In this document: piece by piece, positions 56,578-64,000 of the stretch
Layout: every line of letters begins with the position of its first letter
How positions within the stretch are numbered: position 1 is the first letter of the stretch
Assembly (NCBI RefSeq): GCF_024628805.1
Contig: NZ_CP102382.1
Span: 2,356,001-2,420,000, forward strand
Source of the DNA: Paenimyroides aestuarii
GTDB taxonomy: Bacteria > Bacteroidota > Bacteroidia > Flavobacteriales > Flavobacteriaceae
Length of the DNA stretch: 64,000 nucleotides
Reading direction: 5' to 3'
The notes under the pieces: model-generated
Told to the model about the DNA's origin: nothing
The model's input: the letters and a program-made list of their open reading frames with translations, nothing else
Database searches by the model: none
Program-made: the position numbers and the translations under genes

Positions 56578-57357
56578 ATGAACATATTTCATGTACTTAC
56601 TTTATTGATATGTTGCCAAATAATGGGAGCGCAAACCAACAATTATAAAATTACCTATAAACGTTTTGAAGACAATCTTAAAAAAGACGCTATTTTGTAT
56701 GTAAAACAAGGTGAACCAACGGTAATGCATATTATTTCAGCCTCTACTGTCCCTGTAAAAGTGATAAAAGACACCACTTATATCGATGAAAACGGTGCTA
56801 CGGTATGGAAAAAAGGCACTGGCTCTACAGATTACAGTAAATTTCCAGACGATTATATAAAAGTAGATCACGTAGCCAATAAAATAGAAATGATTAAAGA
56901 TGTTCAAAAAAAGAATTTCTTGGTTACAGATGAGCTGAATTATAAGTGGAACATAACAAACGAAACCAAAAAAATTCAAAATTATACGTGTTACAAAGCC
57001 ACCACTTCCTTCCGTGGTAATACTTTTGAGGCATGGTTTACGCCCGATATTCCTATAAATGCAGGGCCATGGAAATGGTACGGTTTGCCAGGTCTTATTC
57101 TAGAAGCCACCGATACAGACAAAAGTGTGGTTTTTAAAATAGAAAAAATGGAGCAACTCACAGTCGAAATACCGTTTCCTTCAAAAGGATTAGAACAACT
57201 AACATTGCAGCAGTATTTTAAAAAGGTAGATGAAGTAATGGATGCTTTCTGGGCAGAAATAGAAAGCGATCGAAGTGTATCTGTTACAAAGACTGTTTTA
57301 GGTAGATTTGGCTTGGAACGGGTTTACGAATGGGAAGAAGAACCTAAAAAACAATAG
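56578..57357 (+). CDS. GLPGLI family protein, array member 1
   Basis: A 259-residue protein of the GLPGLI family (TIGR01200), exported and of unknown function, limited largely to Bacteroidota. Signal peptide MNIFHVLTLLICCQIMGAQ. The core is visible as CYKATTSFRGNTFEAW, then TPDIPINAGPWKWYGLPGLI (about 160-180), and the C-terminus is EWEEEPKKQ. The open frame starts 10 codons earlier, but the ATG at 56578 begins the signal peptide. Its 3' end is nearly identical to that of array member 2, an obvious duplication junction. Confidence 0.9.
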   Translation: MNIFHVLTLLICCQIMGAQTNNYKITYKRFEDNLKKDAILYVKQGEPTVMHIISASTVPVKVIKDTTYIDENGATVWKKGTGSTDYSKFPDDYIKVDHVANKIEMIKDVQKKNFLVTDELNYKWNITNETKKIQNYTCYKATTSFRGNTFEAWFTPDIPINAGPWKWYGLPGLILEATDTDKSVVFKIEKMEQLTVEIPFPSKGLEQLTLQQYFKKVDEVMDAFWAEIESDRSVSVTKTVLGRFGLERVYEWEEEPKKQ

Positions 57358-57510
57358 CATGCTTATGTGTTATAACCTACAATAAAAAAAGAGCTTCAAA
57401 AAAGTAACAAACAAAAAAGAGAACACAAAGAATACATGAAAAATATCATTCTTACCCTCGTTTGGTTTTACTGTCACGCAACAAATGCGCAGCATTTAAA
57501 AATTACCTAC
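57331..57510 (+). repeat. Duplicated junction, copy 1 (end of GLPGLI 1, spacer, start of GLPGLI 2)
   Basis: This stretch (3' end of gene 1, intergenic DNA and signal-peptide region of gene 2) is nearly identical to 58189-58366, with shared blocks CATGCTTATGTGTTATAACC, AAAGAGAACACAAAGAATAC and TACTGTCACGCAACAAATGC. The differences are a few substitutions. The gene interiors between the copies are much more diverged. Confidence 0.8.
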
Positions 57511-58215
57511 AAGCAATTTCAAACATATGATTATACATCTGTCATAGATACCTATTTGTATATAAATACTAAAGAAAACAAATCTATTTTAGTTCAAGAT
57601 TATAAATCTCAAAAAGAGCTAGATGAAAAAATAAATGATATCGCACATGCTGACGCGTATGCAACACTTGATAGAAGTATCCCTTATGATTTTATTTTTT
57701 TAGATTTAACTAAAAAATCTATAAGTATGTATGAAGATTTTGCTCGGAAAATTTACATGGTTGATGATGTATTTCCAGAAATTAGCTGGCAATTAATTGA
57801 TGAGCAAAAAACAATAAATGATATAAAAGTTAATAAAGCAATTGGCACCTATCGTGGTAATACATGGTATGTTTGGTATGCACCTTCAATTCCTTATAGT
57901 TTTGGTCCTTGGAAACTAAATGGTTTACCAGGATTGATTTTAGAAGCAAAAGATATTGCCGGAAACATAGTTTTTAATGTAGAAAAAATACAATATAACG
58001 TAATTTGTAATGATTGTACACCACCTGGTAATAATCTACATAAGATTACACTTAAAGAGTATCTCATATTACAAGATAATTTTACAAATAATTTAGAAGC
58101 CGATTTGCCGCGAGGAACTACTGTTAGTTATACAAAAAAAAGTATTTTAACAAAAGAATTGAAATTTGAATTTCCAATCAAGTTTTTATGGGAAGAAGAA
58201 CCTAAAAAACAATAG
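57436..58215 (+). CDS. GLPGLI family protein, array member 2
   Basis: A 259-residue GLPGLI protein. Signal peptide MKNIILTLVWFYCHATNAQ, almost the same as in member 3. Core: NKAIGTYRGNTWYVWYAPSI, PYSFGPWKLNGLPGLILEAK. C-terminus LWEEEPKKQ. It lies 78 bases after member 1. In the mature part it contains a pair of close cysteines (ICNDC, about 191-194) not seen in the others. The start ATG is the first of the signal peptide. Confidence 0.9.
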   Translation: MKNIILTLVWFYCHATNAQHLKITYKQFQTYDYTSVIDTYLYINTKENKSILVQDYKSQKELDEKINDIAHADAYATLDRSIPYDFIFLDLTKKSISMYEDFARKIYMVDDVFPEISWQLIDEQKTINDIKVNKAIGTYRGNTWYVWYAPSIPYSFGPWKLNGLPGLILEAKDIAGNIVFNVEKIQYNVICNDCTPPGNNLHKITLKEYLILQDNFTNNLEADLPRGTTVSYTKKSILTKELKFEFPIKFLWEEEPKKQ

Positions 58216-58366
58216 CATGCTTATGTGTTATAACCTACAATAAAAACAGAATTTCAAAATGTAACAAACAAAAAAGAGAACACAAAGAATACATGAAAAA
58301 TATCATTCTTACCATAGTTTGGCTTTACTGTCACGCAACAAATGCGCAGCATTACAAAATAACGTA
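58189..58366 (+). repeat. Duplicated junction, copy 2 (end of GLPGLI 2, spacer, start of GLPGLI 3)
   Basis: Second copy of the junction described at 57331-57510. Differences include CTCGTT/ATAGTT in the signal-peptide region and GAGCTTC/CAGAATT in the spacer. Confidence 0.8.
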
Positions 58367-59087
58367 TATAGAACAATATAATTTTGCCATACCGGTAAAT
58401 TTCACCAGCAGGTTGGTAATTTCTGAGACGGGATCATTGTTTTTAAAAGATGTTAATACCAGAAAGCAAGGTTATGTTACTAATCCAATAGATAATCAAG
58501 ATTTTTTTAAAAATCGGGAAGGTATAACAGAACAAGTTGTGCTAACAGGAACCAATGAATATACTTTTTACGATGCTAATAGCCAATCGTTTAGTTTTCT
58601 TGTGGGCGGAAATTCAAATGTTTGTAAAGAGTTTGTAGATACACCTAACGATATCAATTGGCTTTTAACAAACGAAACCAAAGAAATTGGCAAATTTGTT
58701 ACGCACAAAGCGGTTGCAAATTTTAGAGGCAGAGAATGGGAAGTTTGGTTTACACACGATATTCCGATGTCATACGGACCTTGGAAATTAAGAGGATTGC
58801 CAGGTTTAATAGTAGAAGCCAGAGAAAAAACCGGAAAAATTTATTTTTCTGCAATTAAAGTTGAAAAAACAACAGATTCGGCTGTAAGTTTATATAATGC
58901 TATACCTAAATCAGGTGTAAAAAAAACGTACAAAGAATTTGTAATGCTAACAGAAAACCGTTTAAAGGAGTCTTTTGAATCTCGAAGAGCGAATTTACCA
59001 AGAGGGGAAAATGCAGAAATTTTTATTGCACCACGAAACGGCATCGAACTTATCTACGAATGGGAAGAACAACTGCAAGTTAATTAA
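58293..59087 (+). CDS. GLPGLI family protein, array member 3
   Basis: A 264-residue GLPGLI protein with signal peptide MKNIILTIVWLYCHATNAQ. Core: HKAVANFRGREWEVWFTHDI, PMSYGPWKLRGLPGLIVEAR. The C-terminus ends EWEEQLQVN, where the other tails read EWEEQPKKQ or EWEEEPKKQ: the conserved tail breaks after EWEEQ. It is followed by 306 bases without a gene, which contain a dispersed repeat. Confidence 0.9.
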   Translation: MKNIILTIVWLYCHATNAQHYKITYIEQYNFAIPVNFTSRLVISETGSLFLKDVNTRKQGYVTNPIDNQDFFKNREGITEQVVLTGTNEYTFYDANSQSFSFLVGGNSNVCKEFVDTPNDINWLLTNETKEIGKFVTHKAVANFRGREWEVWFTHDIPMSYGPWKLRGLPGLIVEAREKTGKIYFSAIKVEKTTDSAVSLYNAIPKSGVKKTYKEFVMLTENRLKESFESRRANLPRGENAEIFIAPRNGIELIYEWEEQLQVN

Positions 59088-59125
59088 TGTGTCAGTTAAT
59101 TTGTAGTGGACTATCTATATAAATT

Positions 59126-59290
59126 TCGAAACCTTAAAATCCAAAATTTGCTTTTTTATTACCACAAATGCAAGGATATAATTTTACAAATTAATCGTAC
59201 TAATCCATTAAACTTTCACAAATCTTGAATGCGTTGATTCAACAAAGAGGCACAATTTTTAGACTTTGCTTGAAGTAATATTAATTATAT
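59126..59290. repeat. Degenerate dispersed intergenic repeat, copy B
   Basis: The 306-base gap after array member 3 has no reading frame. It holds the second copy of the element at 4570-4735, with the same ordered islands. A promoter box for member 4 lies at its downstream side. The rest of the gap is AT-rich and featureless by eye. Confidence 0.5.
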
Positions 59291-59356
59291 GTGCATCAGT
59301 GAGAATTTTATAGTGTTATGTGTATTAATTAATAAAAATAATCCAAAAAAAAAAAT

Positions 59357-59364
59357 TATATTTG
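59357..59364 (+). promoter_or_regulatory. -7 promoter box for array member 4
   Basis: TATATTTG matches TAnnTTTG exactly and ends 29 bases before the ATG at 59394. Members 4 onwards may therefore form a transcription unit separate from members 1-3. Confidence 0.55.
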
Positions 59365-59393
59365 ATAGGAATTTGTTTTAAAATTTAACGAAA

Positions 59394-60179
59394 ATGAAAA
59401 AAAAATCTTTTACTATTATTTTTTGTTTATTTATTGCGTGTTATTCTTTCGGTCAATCTAATGGTCTTTTAATTGAGTATCTTCAAGTTATTGATACAGA
59501 AAAAGCTGTTGAAATGAAAGGTTATTTATACGCTTTACCTTCAGAAGCAATTTATGAAGAGTTACTTGAAACAAGAAGACCTTTAAGTGAAAAAGTTGAA
59601 AAAAATGAAAATGAAATTGTTGAAGTTTATCAGCCTTTAATTAATGATAACAAAATATTTATTGTTGATATTAATAATAAAGATGTAGAATATTTTGAAT
59701 ATTTAAAATCGTCTAAAAAATCTAAAATCACTGATGAATTCTCCATAAAGTGGACCACTATTAATGAAAAAAAGATGATAAATGATATTGAGTGTTATAA
59801 AGCAACTACTGATTTTAGAGGTAGAAAATGGGAAGCTTGGTATGCACCTTCAATTCCCTATTCATTTGGGCCTTGGAAGTTTTATGGCTTACCAGGTTTA
59901 ATTATTTCCATTCATGACGAAAGCAAACGCTATAATTTTGCAGTTAAAAAAATTGAAAACCTTAAAGAAAACATTTACAACGACAAATTAAAACATTTTA
60001 AAAGCATTAAATATGATGTGCAACAAACGTTAAAAGAATTTGTTTTGGAAAGAGAAAAAATTGTGGAATCATCTTTTTCTGGTAGAACAATTGAAAGAGG
60101 GAAAGAAATCATAAGAGAAAAAAGACAACGGTCAGGAAGAGAGCTTATCTATGAATGGGAAGAACAATCTGAAAAGTAG
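59394..60179 (+). CDS. GLPGLI family protein, array member 4
   Basis: A 261-residue GLPGLI protein. Signal peptide MKKKSFTIIFCLFIACYSFG. Core: CYKATTDFRGRKWEAWYAPS, IPYSFGPWKFYGLPGLIISI. The C-terminus reads EWEEQSEK. The gene is richer in A and T than members 1-3. No small secreted frame follows it; member 5 begins 122 bases downstream. Confidence 0.9.
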   Translation: MKKKSFTIIFCLFIACYSFGQSNGLLIEYLQVIDTEKAVEMKGYLYALPSEAIYEELLETRRPLSEKVEKNENEIVEVYQPLINDNKIFIVDINNKDVEYFEYLKSSKKSKITDEFSIKWTTINEKKMINDIECYKATTDFRGRKWEAWYAPSIPYSFGPWKFYGLPGLIISIHDESKRYNFAVKKIENLKENIYNDKLKHFKSIKYDVQQTLKEFVLEREKIVESSFSGRTIERGKEIIREKRQRSGRELIYEWEEQSEK

Positions 60180-60301
60180 TAGTTTTTTAACATAATAAAG
60201 GTTTTTTTAATTAATATTGAGTTACTAACTAAAAAAGTGCAAAAACTGTATTTCATAACTTTTGTAGAATGATAAATCAAAATGAGTAGCAAACTAGAAT
60301 T

Positions 60302-61081
60302 ATGAATGCCACTAGAATTACATACATTTTTATACTTGTATATTTTACAGCACAAGCTTCTTTTTCACAGAAGCTAGTGACTATTGACTATACCTCATAT
60401 TATGATTTTAACTTTCCCAAAAAAATACCTTCACAGTTAATTTACAATAACGACGAGTCAATTTTTATAGAGTATATAAGCAAATCTGAAGATTGGGATA
60501 GTCAAAATGTAACAGACAGTATTCTAGGGATTTCATTAGCAGGTTTTGACAACGTATATAATAGTCCCATCACTTCTGAGAATTTCTTTTATCGTATAAA
60601 TACCCAGCCACAAACAGTTATGTTTAATGAGATCTATAAAGGACAAAACGCTTGGATAAAAGATGAATTTGAAAAAATAGAATGGAAAATAACAACAAAA
60701 ACCAAAAATATTGCAAATTTGAAATGCTATAAAGCAATAGCAAACTTTAGAGGTAATGTTTGGAACGCTTGGTTTTCGTATGATTTGCCAGGATCTTTTG
60801 GTCCTTGGAAACTTTCTGGTTTACCAGGTACCATTTTGCAGGCAAGCACATCAAATAAAAAAATTCAGTTTATAGCAAATAAAATCAGCTATTCAAATGA
60901 ACCGATTACAATAACGCCCGTAGTAAAAAATGATCTTGTTAAGTTTAAAGATTTTATTGAATATAAATACAATCTAACTCCAAATACAGACTTTAGTCGT
61001 GGAGAATTACCTCAAAATATACTTTTTAGAGATCCCTTAGAACCAAATTACGAATGGGAAGAACAACCTAAAAAACAATAG
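60302..61081 (+). CDS. GLPGLI family protein, array member 5 (GLPGTI variant)
   Basis: A 259-residue GLPGLI protein with signal peptide MNATRITYIFILVYFTAQA. Core: CYKAIANFRGNVWNAWFSYD, LPGSFGPWKLSGLPGTILQA: the signature is GLPGTI instead of GLPGLI. C-terminus EWEEQPKKQ. It is the first member followed by the shared 160-bp junction and a small secreted frame. Confidence 0.9.
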   Translation: MNATRITYIFILVYFTAQASFSQKLVTIDYTSYYDFNFPKKIPSQLIYNNDESIFIEYISKSEDWDSQNVTDSILGISLAGFDNVYNSPITSENFFYRINTQPQTVMFNEIYKGQNAWIKDEFEKIEWKITTKTKNIANLKCYKAIANFRGNVWNAWFSYDLPGSFGPWKLSGLPGTILQASTSNKKIQFIANKISYSNEPITITPVVKNDLVKFKDFIEYKYNLTPNTDFSRGELPQNILFRDPLEPNYEWEEQPKKQ

Positions 61082-61207
61082 CATATTTATAGTATTTTAA
61101 CATAATTAATTGTATTTTGATTTTGTAATTTGTAATTTCAATTTTTAAGTGCATTAGCTTGCGTAGCTTTTGCTGGGAGCAGTTTTGATTCTAATAAGAT
61201 TGTTAAA
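61049..61207 (+). repeat. Junction repeat, copy 1 (GLPGLI 3' end, spacer, small-protein leader)
   Basis: About 159 bases starting at the codons for YEWEEQPKKQ, through the stop, the spacer and the leader of the small frame (LSALACVAFAGSS). It is nearly identical to copies at 62218 and 63450. Sequence on both sides is diverged. Confidence 0.85.
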
Positions 61208-61456
61208 GATGATAATTGTATGGCAATTACTAAAGAAACAACAAATGAACCAGTAGAGTTTAATAAACCTTGTAAAATTGAGGTAAGGGTAAGAGATCGA
61301 GAAGGGAATCATTCTACACAATTTGCAGGGTCAGTTGGAAACGTGTCTTTATCAGATTGTGATGGAATAAGAGTTCGTTTTGAAGAAGATCTTAGAGCGA
61401 AAGGATATACTTTTGCAGAAGAAGATGTGACTTTGACATGGGGTGTTAGCCAATAA
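61136..61456 (+). CDS. Small secreted-protein-like frame 1, no canonical start codon
   Basis: The frame is open for 106 codons after an in-frame TAA at 61133-61135. It begins with a signal-peptide-like hydrophobic leader FLSALACVAFAGSSFDSN and continues into a mature part with two cysteines 29 residues apart (PCKIEVRVRDREGN ... SLSDCDG). No ATG, GTG, TTG or near-cognate codon lies before the leader; the first ATG (61220) is inside the mature part and would remove the leader. The mature sequence aligns with frames 2 and 3 but is divergent. In this copy the -1 position of the likely cleavage site is Asp instead of Ala. Function unknown. Confidence 0.5.
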   Translation, partial: FQFLSALACVAFAGSSFDSNKIVKDDNCMAITKETTNEPVEFNKPCKIEVRVRDREGNHSTQFAGSVGNVSLSDCDGIRVRFEEDLRAKGYTFAEEDVTLTWGVSQ

Positions 61457-61466
61457 ATACTAATAA

Positions 61467-61503
61467 AATCAATATTAGTGCTATTTTAGCACTAATATTG
61501 ATT
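61467..61503. terminator. Long perfect hairpin after small frame 1
   Basis: A perfect 17-bp stem (AATCAATATTAGTGCTA with its reverse complement) and a TTT loop, 10 bases after the stop. No U-run follows. It may act as a terminator or mRNA-protecting structure. The next gene's start (61516) is 12 bases beyond the stem. Confidence 0.65.
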
Positions 61504-61515
61504 AATAACTTATAT

Positions 61516-62250
61516 ATGAGAAAATTAATATTAGTTAGTTTATTTTGTTTAGTTTACAATATACTACATTCCCAAAAGCAATATAACTATTTATTTTATG
61601 TGGATAACACCGTACGAACAGGGGCGTTGCTATTTAACGAAAAAACAAACACTGCAGAATATATTGACAAAATGGAGAATCTTAAATCGACCAAAGCTGA
61701 AGGAAAACCTGTTTTTACAGTTTCTGTAGATGGATTTAATGATTTTGTGTATTACAAAAAAAACGTCAATGAATTGAATTATACTTATGAATTACTTAAG
61801 ATACCCTATTTTATAAATGATTCTACAATAAATATAAATTGGGAATTGCATTCCGATCAAAAAGAAATTCAAGGTTTAAACTGTAAGAAAGCCACCACCT
61901 TTTTTAGAGGTAGAAAATGGACTGTTTGGTATTGCCCAGATATACCGGTGGTTTACGGACCTTGGAAGTTTTATGGCTTACCCGGTTTGATGGTAGAAGT
62001 AACTGAAGATACTAATAGGTTTGCTTTTGTCTTAATAGAAATATTAGAAAAACCAACTGCGGTTTTACCCAACTTAAACCTTTCGAAACACAAACAAATT
62101 GATCTAAAAACATTTGATGAAATTTTTCATGATGCCATGAATTTAAAAGATCTTAAAAATTCAAGAGGTTATGTTATTGAAGGCGAACCTTTTAAAAGGC
62201 AAGGCATCGAACTCCTCTACGAATGGGAAGAACAACCTAAAAAACAATAG
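61516..62250 (+). CDS. GLPGLI family protein, array member 6
   Basis: A 244-residue GLPGLI protein. Signal peptide MRKLILVSLFCLVYNILHSQ. Core: CKKATTFFRGRKWTVWYCPD, IPVVYGPWKFYGLPGLMVEV. C-terminus EWEEQPKKQ. The frame could open at a TTG at 61498, but this lies inside the upstream hairpin, so the ATG at 61516 is chosen. It is followed by a copy of the shared junction and small frame 2. Confidence 0.88.
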   Translation: MRKLILVSLFCLVYNILHSQKQYNYLFYVDNTVRTGALLFNEKTNTAEYIDKMENLKSTKAEGKPVFTVSVDGFNDFVYYKKNVNELNYTYELLKIPYFINDSTININWELHSDQKEIQGLNCKKATTFFRGRKWTVWYCPDIPVVYGPWKFYGLPGLMVEVTEDTNRFAFVLIEILEKPTAVLPNLNLSKHKQIDLKTFDEIFHDAMNLKDLKNSRGYVIEGEPFKRQGIELLYEWEEQPKKQ

Positions 62251-62376
62251 CATATTTATAGTATTTTAACATAATTTTTTGTATTTTGATTTTGTAATTT
62301 GTAATTTCAATTTTTAAGCGCATTAGCTTGCGTAGCTTTTGCTGGAAGCAGTTTTGCTTCGAATGAAGTTGTTAAT
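62218..62376 (+). repeat. Junction repeat, copy 2 (GLPGLI 3' end, spacer, small-protein leader)
   Basis: About 159 bases. Compared with copy 1, differences include TAATTTTTTG for TAATTAATTG and AAGCGCAT for AAGTGCAT. The missing start codon before the leader is shared with the other two copies. Confidence 0.85.
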
Positions 62377-62628
62377 GTAGTATCTAAAGTTGAGACTAGT
62401 ATAGACTCTAATTATTTTCAAGACGATAATGGTTTTACTTACTGTACAATAACAATTACTGTATCAGACCAAGATGGAAACGTTGTAGATCAAAGAACTT
62501 TTTTTAGAATAGTTTCTGGTACTGGTTATGCTGGGGCAATTAATTGTGCTGCAACAGGTGCTGAATTAGCAGCACAAATAAGTAAGAACATTACCCCTGA
62601 TGGTCACATACCTCTTATGTTTCAATAA
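62305..62628 (+). CDS. Small secreted-protein-like frame 2, no canonical start codon
   Basis: An in-frame open stretch of 107 codons after a TAA at 62302-62304. The leader FLSALACVAFAGSSFASN matches frames 1 and 3. The mature part has two cysteines (FTYCTITITVSDQDG and AINCAATGAEL) with 33 residues between them, plus a central GTGYAG. It lacks any in-frame start codon. The first methionine codon is next to the C-terminus, so no shorter product is possible; unless a start is supplied by recombination or frameshifting, it is silent. Confidence 0.5.
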   Translation, partial: FQFLSALACVAFAGSSFASNEVVNVVSKVETSIDSNYFQDDNGFTYCTITITVSDQDGNVVDQRTFFRIVSGTGYAGAINCAATGAELAAQISKNITPDGHIPLMFQ

Positions 62629-62635
62629 TTATCAT

Positions 62636-62660
62636 GTGCTAGCAATTAAATTGCTAGCAC
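62636..62660. terminator. Perfect hairpin after small frame 2
   Basis: An 11-bp stem (GTGCTAGCAAT with its reverse complement) with loop TAA, 7 bases after the stop. It lacks a U-run. The sequence is unrelated to the hairpin after small frame 1, although position is the same. Confidence 0.6.
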
Positions 62661-62678
62661 TATGTAAGATTTAACTAT

Positions 62679-63482
62679 ATGAAAAGAATTTTAACGTTAC
62701 TAGTTTGCTTATTATTTTCAACATTTTTGAGAGGTCAATACTCTTTACAAATAGAGTACAATCAAATTTTCAATACAGATTTTCCTTTAATAAGAACCGG
62801 ATTGCTTCAAGTGAATAGTAATCAATCTATTTTTGTAGATTTAATGAAAAGTAAAAGACCTATAAAGGAAAATAGTGATACGAATATTTCATACTTAGAT
62901 AACCTTTCCGACCATGAAAGATATACAGAAATAAAAGAAGGAGAAAAAATTAATTTACAGGTTGGTGGTAATTATGATCAGTATTACATGTATGACCAAA
63001 GTAAAAAGACTTTTCTGTTTACAGGTGAACTTGGCAAAGAGCAATTTCTTATTTCGGATAACTTTAATTTGCAATGGGAAATAACGAATGAAACAAAAAC
63101 GATCTCTAATTATAAGGTTTATAAAGCCTCTACAAATTTTAGAGGGCGAAATTGGGATGCATGGTTTGCTCCTGAATTGGCTTATAATTTTGGACCATGG
63201 AAACTGCATGGTTTACCAGGGTTAATTTTAGAAGCTTATGATGACAGTCATCGATATCATTTTGTAGCTATAAAAATTAAGAATGATAAAAATTTACCAA
63301 TGGAACCAAATACTCATTTTTTAAAGAAGATTGATTTTAAAAATTTTATATTGGGTAATTTTGAAATAATTGAAAATAGTGTAAACATAATTGAAAGAGA
63401 CTATGAGGTTATTAGGCATAATGTAAAGCGTAACAGTAAAGAACTCATCTACGAATGGGAAGAACAACCTAAAAAACAATAG
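62679..63482 (+). CDS. GLPGLI family protein, array member 7
   Basis: A 267-residue GLPGLI protein with signal peptide MKRILTLLVCLLFSTFLRG. Core: VYKASTNFRGRNWDAWFAPE, LAYNFGPWKLHGLPGLILEA. C-terminus EWEEQPKKQ. The first residue of the usual C-K-A motif is Val (YKVYKAS), so the cysteine seen in members 1, 4, 5 and 6 is absent. It is followed by a third copy of the junction and small frame 3. Confidence 0.9.
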   Translation: MKRILTLLVCLLFSTFLRGQYSLQIEYNQIFNTDFPLIRTGLLQVNSNQSIFVDLMKSKRPIKENSDTNISYLDNLSDHERYTEIKEGEKINLQVGGNYDQYYMYDQSKKTFLFTGELGKEQFLISDNFNLQWEITNETKTISNYKVYKASTNFRGRNWDAWFAPELAYNFGPWKLHGLPGLILEAYDDSHRYHFVAIKIKNDKNLPMEPNTHFLKKIDFKNFILGNFEIIENSVNIIERDYEVIRHNVKRNSKELIYEWEEQPKKQ

Positions 63483-63610
63483 CATATTTATAGTATTTTA
63501 ACATAATTAATTGTATTTTGATTTTGTAATTTGTAATTTCAATTTTTAAGTGCATTAGCTTGCGTAGCTTTTGCTGGAAGCAGTTTTGCTTCTAATGAGA
63601 TTGTTAAAGA
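63450..63610 (+). repeat. Junction repeat, copy 3 (GLPGLI 3' end, spacer, small-protein leader)
   Basis: About 161 bases, identical to copy 1 through the spacer (AATTAATTGTATTTTGATTT) and with only a few changes in the leader. Again no start codon precedes the leader. Confidence 0.85.
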
Positions 63611-63836
63611 AGTAGAAGCAAACAAAAGTTCAAATGTGAATTTAGATTTTGATGCTGCTCCTTGTAGATTTAGTATTTGTGTTTACCATCCTGAAACGGG
63701 AGAAGCTATCTACGGTTTCGATTATGTTGGAACAGCAGGAAGTGCTGACGATTGTTTTGAAAAAGGCTTAAGAAAACAAGAGGAACTTAGTATTGAGTAT
63801 CCCGGAATGAACATAAGTATGGATATAATAAATTAA
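63537..63836 (+). CDS. Small secreted-protein-like frame 3, no canonical start codon
   Basis: An in-frame open stretch of 99 codons after a TAA at 63534-63536. The leader FLSALACVAFAGSSFASN is followed by a mature part with a cysteine in APCRFSICVYHPETGE and a second in SADDCFEKGL, with 29 residues between them. A third cysteine (SICV) lies between. The first ATG (63636) is inside the mature part. It is followed by a terminator with a U-run, unlike frames 1 and 2. Confidence 0.5.
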   Translation, partial: FQFLSALACVAFAGSSFASNEIVKEVEANKSSNVNLDFDAAPCRFSICVYHPETGEAIYGFDYVGTAGSADDCFEKGLRKQEELSIEYPGMNISMDIIN

Positions 63837-63846
63837 CAAAAAAAGA

Positions 63847-63873
63847 GAGGGAAGTTTAATTCCCTCTTGTTTT
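63847..63873 (+). terminator. Terminator after small frame 3
   Basis: A 7-bp stem (GAGGGAA with TTCCCTC) with a 6-base loop, followed by TTGTTTT, 11 bases after the stop. Confidence 0.75.
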
Positions 63874-63889
63874 AATAAATAAATTAATA

Positions 63890-64000
63890 ATGAAAAAAAT
63901 TTTTATATACAGTTTATTTTTTTTAGTCATAAAAACTTGGGGGCAAAATAATAAATTAGTTGTTAAATATGATATTCTATATCAGACAACTAAAACGTTA
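63890..64000 (+). CDS. GLPGLI-like protein, array member 8 (3' truncated by window edge)
   Basis: The first 37 codons of another exported protein: signal peptide MKKIFIYSLFFLVIKTWGQ followed by NNKLVVKYDILYQTTKTL, which resembles the start of the mature part in the other array members (YKITYKRF, LKITYKQF, LLIEYLQV). The GLPGLI motif itself lies beyond the window, so membership is inferred from start pattern, spacing and position. Confidence 0.7.
   Translation, partial: MKKIFIYSLFFLVIKTWGQNNKLVVKYDILYQTTKTL

What the first reader, a model, noticed from the sequence alone, without database searches (positions are those of the whole stretch)
56578..64000. An array of at least eight GLPGLI-family genes, three of which pair with a small secreted-like protein
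Eight consecutive plus-strand genes encode exported GLPGLI proteins (the last one truncated). The three units at 60.3, 61.5 and 62.7 kb each add a small frame with a signal-peptide-like leader and a diverged two-cysteine mature part. The sequence shows gene ends, spacers and leaders nearly identical, but mature parts strongly diverged. Established knowledge: GLPGLI proteins (TIGR01200) are a Bacteroidota family of unknown function. Inference: the array is a diversifying set of secreted protein pairs, perhaps an antagonism or self/non-self system with the large protein as partner, chaperone or immunity factor.
Basis: partly seen in the sequence, partly recalled or inferred. Interest (0 to 1): 0.85.

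Follow-up and report, generated by a model that had tools for sequence, protein, structure and literature searches.

The report
Shuffling secreted-protein pairs beside outer-membrane gene
This Flavobacterium genome carries eight related exported-protein genes that belong to a fast-changing set of two-gene cassettes, a small secreted cysteine protein plus a larger partner of the uncharacterised GLPGLI family, and the partner is kept when the small protein is lost or silenced, as in weapon-and-antidote arrays, although no activity has been tested.

Summary
The array has eight GLPGLI (TIGR01200) genes and ends just past the window in an 887-aa outer-membrane protein (OMP). The three small frames are real, but none has a start codon, so they are probably silent here. 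Each pairs with the GLPGLI gene downstream of it.

In relatives the standard unit is small secreted protein > GLPGLI > OMP: 87 locus groups, 220 GLPGLI genes. Small and GLPGLI co-vary as cognate pairs: 30 of 31 best-matching smalls bring the matching GLPGLI, 12.1 expected. Against relative G188 (flanks 94-96% identical) only three of eight GLPGLI genes have orthologues; G188 keeps a small gene that the window lacks. No surveyed full-length small (0 of 106) lacks a GLPGLI; 79 of 220 GLPGLI lack a small. Small genes lack an ATG more often than GLPGLI genes (19/141 vs 3/205); 18 of 103 carry upstream repeats of 14 nt or more, against 2 of 545 controls.

Best reading: a polymorphic secreted effector-immunity-like cassette array with GLPGLI as the retained partner. 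Cassette evolution is shown; antagonism is inferred. Structure prediction never ran.

The parts
56578..57357 (+). GLPGLI gene 1, no small gene; orthologue in G188 (90%) and G220 (68%)
   Evidence: dN/dS 0.30 vs G188, 0.19 vs G220
57436..58215 (+). GLPGLI gene 2, no small gene; no orthologue in G188
58293..59087 (+). GLPGLI gene 3, no small gene; shares 93-96% identical spacer and leader with gene 2
   Evidence: (D8, D9)
59088..59393 (+). spacer without a small frame; in G188 an ATG-started small gene precedes the orthologue of gene 4
59394..60179 (+). GLPGLI gene 4, without the small partner that G188 has
   Evidence: dN/dS 0.20
60302..61081 (+). GLPGLI gene 5, no small gene upstream
   Evidence: dN/dS 0.35
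61040..61213 (+). conserved block: GLPGLI tail + spacer + start-less leader (copy 1)
   Evidence: family D2
61142..61456 (+). start-less small secreted-type frame 1
61516..62250 (+). GLPGLI gene 6, partner of small frame 1; this pair best matches two pairs in G220
62209..62382 (+). conserved block (copy 2)
   Evidence: family D2
62311..62628 (+). start-less small secreted-type frame 2
62679..63482 (+). GLPGLI gene 7, partner of small frame 2
63441..63614 (+). conserved block (copy 3)
   Evidence: family D2
63543..63836 (+). start-less small secreted-type frame 3
63890..64000 (+). GLPGLI gene 8 (continues to L009:1188), followed outside the window by the 887-aa OMP (L009:1197-3860)

Best explanation
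The locus is a recombining cassette array. Each cassette is a cognate pair: a small Sec-type exported protein with a conserved leader and a hypervariable mature domain of nearly fixed two-cysteine spacing, and a GLPGLI protein directly downstream. One OMP closes the array. Cassettes are gained, lost and exchanged, probably through the conserved blocks (GLPGLI tail, spacer, leader, 5' end of the OMP gene). The small gene is the expendable half: it is absent, or without a start codon, or placed behind a repeat-bearing upstream region in part of the cassettes, while the GLPGLI gene is kept (under purifying selection in the three orphans tested). I infer that the small protein is a narrow-spectrum secreted effector, the GLPGLI protein its cognate periplasmic immunity-like partner, and the OMP the shared outer-membrane route. 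In this strain the array would be mainly a retained protection set (eight GLPGLI genes, no small frame with a start codon). Shown: pairing, turnover, asymmetric loss, start lesions, repeat enrichment. Inferred: toxicity, immunity, the role of the OMP, actual switching.
For: Pairing: r=0.672 against 0.394 +/- 0.032 for within-locus partner shuffles (2000 shuffles, P=0.0005); 30 of 31 best-matching smalls bring the matching GLPGLI, 12.1 expected; 21 of 22 when comparisons inside the closest species group are left out, 6.1 expected. Turnover: 3 of 8 orthologues against G188. Asymmetry: 0 of 106 full-length smalls without a GLPGLI within 450 nt, 79 of 220 GLPGLI without a small; no ATG in 19 of 141 small frames against 3 of 205 GLPGLI, P=1.4e-5; with GTG and TTG allowed 17 of 141 against 1 of 205, P=1.5e-6; dN/dS 0.20-0.35 for orphan genes 1, 4, 5. 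A small gene present in G188 and absent in the window before gene 4. Geometry: smalls with exactly two mature cysteines have a median spacing of 31 residues, 5-95% range 25-33, n=100, although mature parts are hardly alike (within-locus median score 0.04, leader 0.83). Repeats of 14 nt or more upstream of 18 of 103 smalls against 2 of 545 intergenic controls. OMP 5' fragments in 34 of 96 inter-unit spacers. A module on a plasmid-like contig of G188.
Against: No toxin or immunity family matches in the proteins scanned. Mature smalls are acidic (median pI 4.5), unlike many membrane-active bacteriocins (recalled). GLPGLI genes are far commoner (55 of 61 genomes) than the helical small type (15 of 61 in another draw), so an orphan may have another role; of 26 orphans with a close counterpart elsewhere, 15 counterparts are orphans too, and absence of a small could be gain elsewhere rather than loss. 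Small genes are not significantly closer to the OMP within arrays (P=0.20-0.32), so the polar order expected of sequential displacement is not supported. One small gene on the G188 plasmid-like contig has no GLPGLI after it.
Confidence: 0.45

Rival explanations
1. [quoted passage not shown] the small protein is a surface ligand, adhesin or signal, and diversification comes from recognition specificity or escape.
For: Strict pairing, an OMP at the end of the arrays and its CarboxypepD_reg N-terminus, as in Oar (PMC6434023, passages read).
Against: A carrier would not be expected to stay under purifying selection where its cargo gene is gone.
Confidence: 0.22
2. Variation archive: start-less cassettes are silent donors or switched-off copies; leader conversion swaps ON (ATG) and OFF leaders and repeat slippage tunes expression, giving a varying secreted or surface repertoire.
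For: Lesions sit at the start while the mature frame stays open (15 start-less full-length frames against 1 ATG-truncated, of 113 leader hits); the same or nearly the same OFF leader is shared by cassettes with different mature parts (L082 two, L095 two, L106 two, window three); the same cassette is ON in F. glaciei and OFF in F. turcicum and F. erciyesense; upstream repeats.
Against: No single expression site was found; in the window all three copies are OFF and no ON copy of this small type was seen in the loci read from this genome; no strain series was available.
Confidence: 0.2
3. Nutrient or metal capture: small secreted binders with GLPGLI and a TonB-type OMP scavenge ligands, and paralogues differ in ligand.
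For: The OMP architecture resembles TonB-dependent transporters (weak Plug match, 13.4 bits against a cut-off of 23.9).
Against: Does not explain cassette turnover, start-codon silencing or strict pair co-variation.
Confidence: 0.08
4. Neutral decay: the small genes are ordinary pseudogenes in an old paralogue cluster.
For: All three window copies lack a start codon; a leader relic remains in a G188 spacer; one small gene (L091) has two internal stops.
Against: 122 of 220 units have ATG small genes; lesions are not spread along the frame; cysteine spacing is conserved.
Confidence: 0.05

Closest known systems
GLPGLI family (TIGR01200 / Pfam Porph_ging PF09697)
   Same: All eight large proteins score over the TIGR01200 cut-off.
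   Different: No function is known to me; the 3 papers found mention GLPGLI genes in gene lists or annotation remarks in the passages I read, without a small partner or array.
Orphan immunity gene arrays of T6SS clusters in Vibrio cholerae (PMC5361080, abstract and start of the introduction read)
   Same: Pairs exchanged as modules; effector lost while immunity is retained; arrays differ between relatives.
   Different: Here both partners have Sec-type leaders, an OMP closes the array, small genes are silenced at the start codon and carry upstream repeats; no polar order was found. I did not search for T6SS genes in this genome.
Bacteroidetocins (PMC6671954, passages read)
   Same: Small secreted cysteine-containing proteins of Bacteroidota.
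   Different: They have 15-16 aa double-glycine leaders and ABC transporter/peptidase genes; here Sec-type leaders, acidic mature parts, a GLPGLI partner and an OMP.
Oar, the TonB-dependent transporter required for PopC secretion (PMC6434023, passages read)
   Same: CarboxypepD_reg N-terminal domain plus outer-membrane barrel.
   Different: The Plug domain is below cut-off here; export of the small protein is not shown.
N-terminal bowl-like (NBL) domain of PNGase F-II type enzymes (PF22252; 7ZGN, PMC9522356, passages read)
   Same: Sub-threshold sequence matches to GLPGLI, so possibly the same fold.
   Different: NBL is an enzyme domain of unknown function; no fold comparison could be run.

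Membership tests
GLPGLI family TIGR01200 | score above the curated cut-off of 50 bits | tested here: met
   eight of eight array genes, 111-145 bits
Effector-immunity cassette array with orphan immunity genes | cognate pairs co-vary and move together | tested here: met
Effector-immunity cassette array with orphan immunity genes | second gene retained without the first, not the reverse | tested here: met
   79 of 220 against 0 of 106; one exception on the G188 plasmid-like contig
Effector-immunity cassette array with orphan immunity genes | order set by sequential displacement (orphans far from the delivery gene) | tested here: not met
   within-locus permutation P=0.20-0.32
Effector-immunity cassette array with orphan immunity genes | toxicity of the first protein and specific protection by the second | not testable with these tools
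   needs expression assays
Bacteroidetocin (class IIf) | double-glycine leader and adjacent ABC transporter/peptidase | tested here: not met
   by inspection: Sec-type leaders, neighbours GLPGLI and OMP
Oar-type TonB-dependent transporter | CarboxypepD_reg N-terminal extension | tested here: met
   PF13715 above cut-off in 3 of 3 different OMPs scanned
Oar-type TonB-dependent transporter | Plug domain with TonB box | tested here: inconclusive
   Plug only 13.4 bits against 23.9 in one of 3 OMPs, none in the other two; TonB box not sought
Silent-cassette antigenic variation | start- or promoter-less donors and one expressed copy of the same type | tested here: inconclusive
   start-less copies seen; no dedicated expression site recognised

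The most novel reading that the evidence does not exclude
GLPGLI proteins of this clade are specificity-matched immunity partners of a hypervariable family of secreted disulfide-type effectors. The effector half is a contingency locus: its conserved leader is a gene-conversion tract that turns start codons on and off between cassettes, and a homopolymer or trinucleotide repeat at a fixed place upstream tunes expression, so cells switch weapons while keeping all antidotes. This would give the GLPGLI family its first function.
Probability: 0.28. Interest if true: 0.88.

Novelty: new variant of a known kind. Interest (0 to 1): 0.72.

Why it matters
GLPGLI (TIGR01200) is a common Bacteroidota family without a known function; the strict pairing with a small secreted partner makes its function testable with one two-gene construct. 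If the antagonism reading holds, Flavobacteriaceae have a switchable Sec-exported effector-immunity system that the family and defence libraries scanned here do not name. If it fails, the pairs still offer a clean case of co-evolving secreted partners with silencing at the leader.

Tried and rejected
Polar growth of the array (old orphans far from the OMP): the raw gradient (ATG small in 63 of 93 units nearest the OMP, 6 of 21 at rank 4 or more) is not significant in the within-locus permutation, and G220 shows the opposite order. GLPGLI as toxin with the small protein as obligate immunity: disfavoured because orphan GLPGLI genes are common (68 intact of 79) and three tested ones are conserved. 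The roughly 43-nt insertion in F. turcicum leaders as a mobile element: its 71-nt block occurs only in the two array cassettes of that genome; the other 5 matches are short and weak. PDB by sequence: GLPGLI gave two weak hits, 7ZGN at E 0.07 and an unrelated-looking one at 0.3; OMP none at 0.001. Defence library: no match for 5 proteins.

Limits. The 80 named loci are the best 80 of 260; 74 of them contributed arrays. The 87 groups are locus-and-strand groups; two neighbouring modules on one strand count as one group, and close species are counted separately. The leader profile was trained on smalls upstream of GLPGLI and most arrays were found through the OMP, so solitary smalls elsewhere could be missed; in a scan of 61 whole genomes all 18 hits of at least 32 bits lie just upstream of a GLPGLI gene (matched by hand against the tables), and the 6 weaker of the 24 hits were not counted. 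The lesion-target arithmetic (P about 0.02 for substitutions, about 1e-5 to 1e-4 for indels) rests on my own count of independent lesions and is rough. In one search the OMP of L079 was taken from the wrong array, so its six 'far' pairs there are not valid and the partial correlation is slightly affected; one search repeats the main test without comparisons inside that species group. In one search the OMP dN/dS line failed (wrong coordinates) and is not used. Two of the 19 small frames without ATG have an in-frame TTG farther upstream (L106 second copy, L184).
Full report
What is there. The window lies in a 2.96-Mb single-contig genome. Eight GLPGLI genes run from 56578 to just beyond the window end, all over the TIGR01200 cut-off. 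The eighth ends at L009:1188 and is followed by an 887-aa protein with a CarboxypepD_reg domain and a sub-threshold OMP_b-brl_3 match. Three small frames with a signal-peptide-like leader lie upstream of genes 6, 7 and 8. In all three an in-frame stop sits three codons upstream of the leader, and no ATG, GTG or TTG lies between. A nearly identical 5' junction occurs in one cassette of the relative G188 (which has an in-frame TTG farther up), while another G188 cassette has an ATG and roughly 40-50 nt more at this place. The junction is therefore unlikely to be a sequencing error.

The standard module. Elsewhere in the same genome two modules read small (ATG) > GLPGLI > OMP, and a third locus reads small (frame broken just after its ATG) > GLPGLI. 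Of 20 regions taken from relatives, at least 8 (L055-L062) show small, GLPGLI and OMP together; others have GLPGLI without small or OMP. A collection scan with the OMP found 260 relatives and kept the best 80: Flavobacterium, Capnocytophaga, Paenimyroides, Polaribacter, Tenacibaculum and unclassified Bacteroidota genomes. With the window, the other modules of its genome and 11 loci from unnamed relatives this gives 87 locus groups with 220 GLPGLI genes: 122 with an ATG small gene, 19 with a small frame without ATG, 79 without a small. Of 31 single-unit loci 27 have an ATG small gene, 1 one without ATG and 3 none, two of these with an incomplete GLPGLI at the contig end. Multi-unit groups hold 95, 18 and 76. 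Mature smalls fall into two sequence types (my classification): most look like a helical hairpin with invariant cysteines at alignment positions 43 and 75 (40 sequences); the window belongs to a second type with conserved C39, G50 and C67 (9 sequences).

Pairs. Over 136 pairs, mature-small similarity correlates with GLPGLI similarity (r=0.672; within-locus partner shuffles 0.394 +/- 0.032, 2000 shuffles, P=0.0005); 30 of 31 best matches carry the matching GLPGLI, 12.1 expected. Leaving out comparisons inside the closest species group it is 21 of 22, 6.1 expected, and the partner is the downstream gene (r 0.64 against 0.24, 68 smalls). Controlling for OMP identity leaves a partial correlation of about 0.60 (with the flaw told under Tried and rejected). 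Within a locus the leaders are alike (median score 0.83) while mature smalls (0.04) and GLPGLI (0.18) are not.

Turnover. G188 is colinear on both flanks at 94-96% DNA identity. Window genes 1, 4 and 5 have orthologues at 90-91%; genes 2, 3, 6, 7 and 8 have none; G188 has three of six unmatched. G188 has an ATG small gene before its copy of gene 4; the window has none. The window pair small 1 + gene 6 best matches two pairs of the more distant G220 (44/42% and 40/40%). Fragments of the OMP 5' end lie in 34 of 96 inter-unit spacers, in 24 loci; in 20 of 34 the resident OMP is the best match. A related module (OMP, four small genes, two GLPGLI) lies on a 64.6-kb contig of G188 whose genes look plasmid-like to me (ParA-, Tra- and transposase-like; recognised by eye, no family search; the two GLPGLI and the OMP by profile).

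The small half is expendable. None of 106 full-length small frames in the surveyed loci lacks a GLPGLI within 450 nt, but 79 of 220 GLPGLI lack a small (68 of them intact; 44 have less than 150 nt of room). One small on the G188 plasmid-like contig is followed by transposase-like genes and has no GLPGLI after it. Orphan genes 1, 4 and 5 evolve under constraint (dN/dS 0.30, 0.20, 0.35 against G188). Of 26 orphans with a close counterpart in another locus, 11 counterparts are paired (7 ATG, 4 without ATG) and 15 are orphans.

Start-codon silencing. Of 113 leader hits in 83 sources, 94 have ATG and full length, 15 are start-less with full length, 3 are start-less and truncated, and 1 has ATG but is truncated. 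Loss of the ATG is commoner in small frames (19 of 141) than in full-length GLPGLI frames (3 of 205, one frame at a locus edge dropped; P=1.4e-5); with GTG and TTG allowed it is 17 of 141 against 1 of 205 (P=1.5e-6). The lesions differ between lineages, and the same or nearly the same lesion is shared by cassettes with different mature parts inside one genome, 100% identical over 71 nt in F. turcicum. One cassette is intact in F. glaciei and start-less in two relatives with nearly identical mature DNA. This suggests leader conversion, and possibly reversible silencing, which I could not test on strains.

Upstream repeats. Repeats of at least 14 nt lie within 130 nt upstream of 18 of 103 ATG smalls against 2 of 545 intergenic controls (P=1.6e-13), and T-runs of at least 9 end 47-58 nt before the ATG in 23 of 25 cases. 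GLPGLI upstream regions have none of 14 nt or more (0 of 202). In the window's own genome two other small genes have TAT repeats of 54 and 18 nt ending 31 nt before the ATG. The T-run abuts a sequence that resembles the Bacteroidota -7 promoter element (recalled consensus TAnnTTTG), which would make it a promoter spacer; this is a reading, not a test. The three window copies carry no such repeat (by eye).

How it probably works. The asymmetry (partner kept, small absent, silenced or behind repeats), the strict specificity and the turnover fit a secreted effector with a cognate immunity-like partner, like orphan immunity arrays (PMC5361080, abstract and start of introduction read). The OMP may be the shared export route, as Oar is for PopC (PMC6434023, passages read). 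I put the antagonism mechanism at 0.45. The missing links are toxicity, protection, secretion and structure; structure prediction was never accepted by the busy machine (16 tries). A search of the held library for GLPGLI found 3 papers, and the passages I read say nothing of such pairs; Porph_ging found none. Papers outside that library were not searched.

Noticed in passing
L011:3403-3740 and L011:7357-7760 (own genome near 297.7 and 301.7 kb, minus strand): Small genes of two small-GLPGLI-OMP modules in tandem have TAT repeats of 18 and 6 units, 31 nt before the ATG.
   Followed up: partly
L012:2508-2850 (own genome near 1.4 Mb, minus strand): A third small gene whose frame is broken just after its ATG in a run of A; the counterpart in L072 is open.
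   Followed up: partly
L082:6398-6468, and similar in L079, L106, L084: A related insertion of about 43 nt after the first codons of several small genes; origin unknown, not found elsewhere in the F. turcicum genome at useful scores.
   Followed up: partly
L186, L233-L235 (64.6-kb contig C2 of G188): Plasmid-like contig with an OMP, four small genes, two GLPGLI and transposase-like genes, beside metal-resistance-like and conjugation-like genes (by eye).
   Followed up: partly
L009:5653-10099: A restriction-modification-like gene pair (methyltransferase- and helicase-like, by eye) a few kb downstream of the array.
   Followed up: no
upstream of helical-type small genes, for example L103:590-683: A GGTTAAC/GTTAACC motif in 28 of 119 small upstream regions and 0 of 202 GLPGLI upstream regions; where a T-run is present it lies between the T-run and the ATG in most listed cases.
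   Followed up: no
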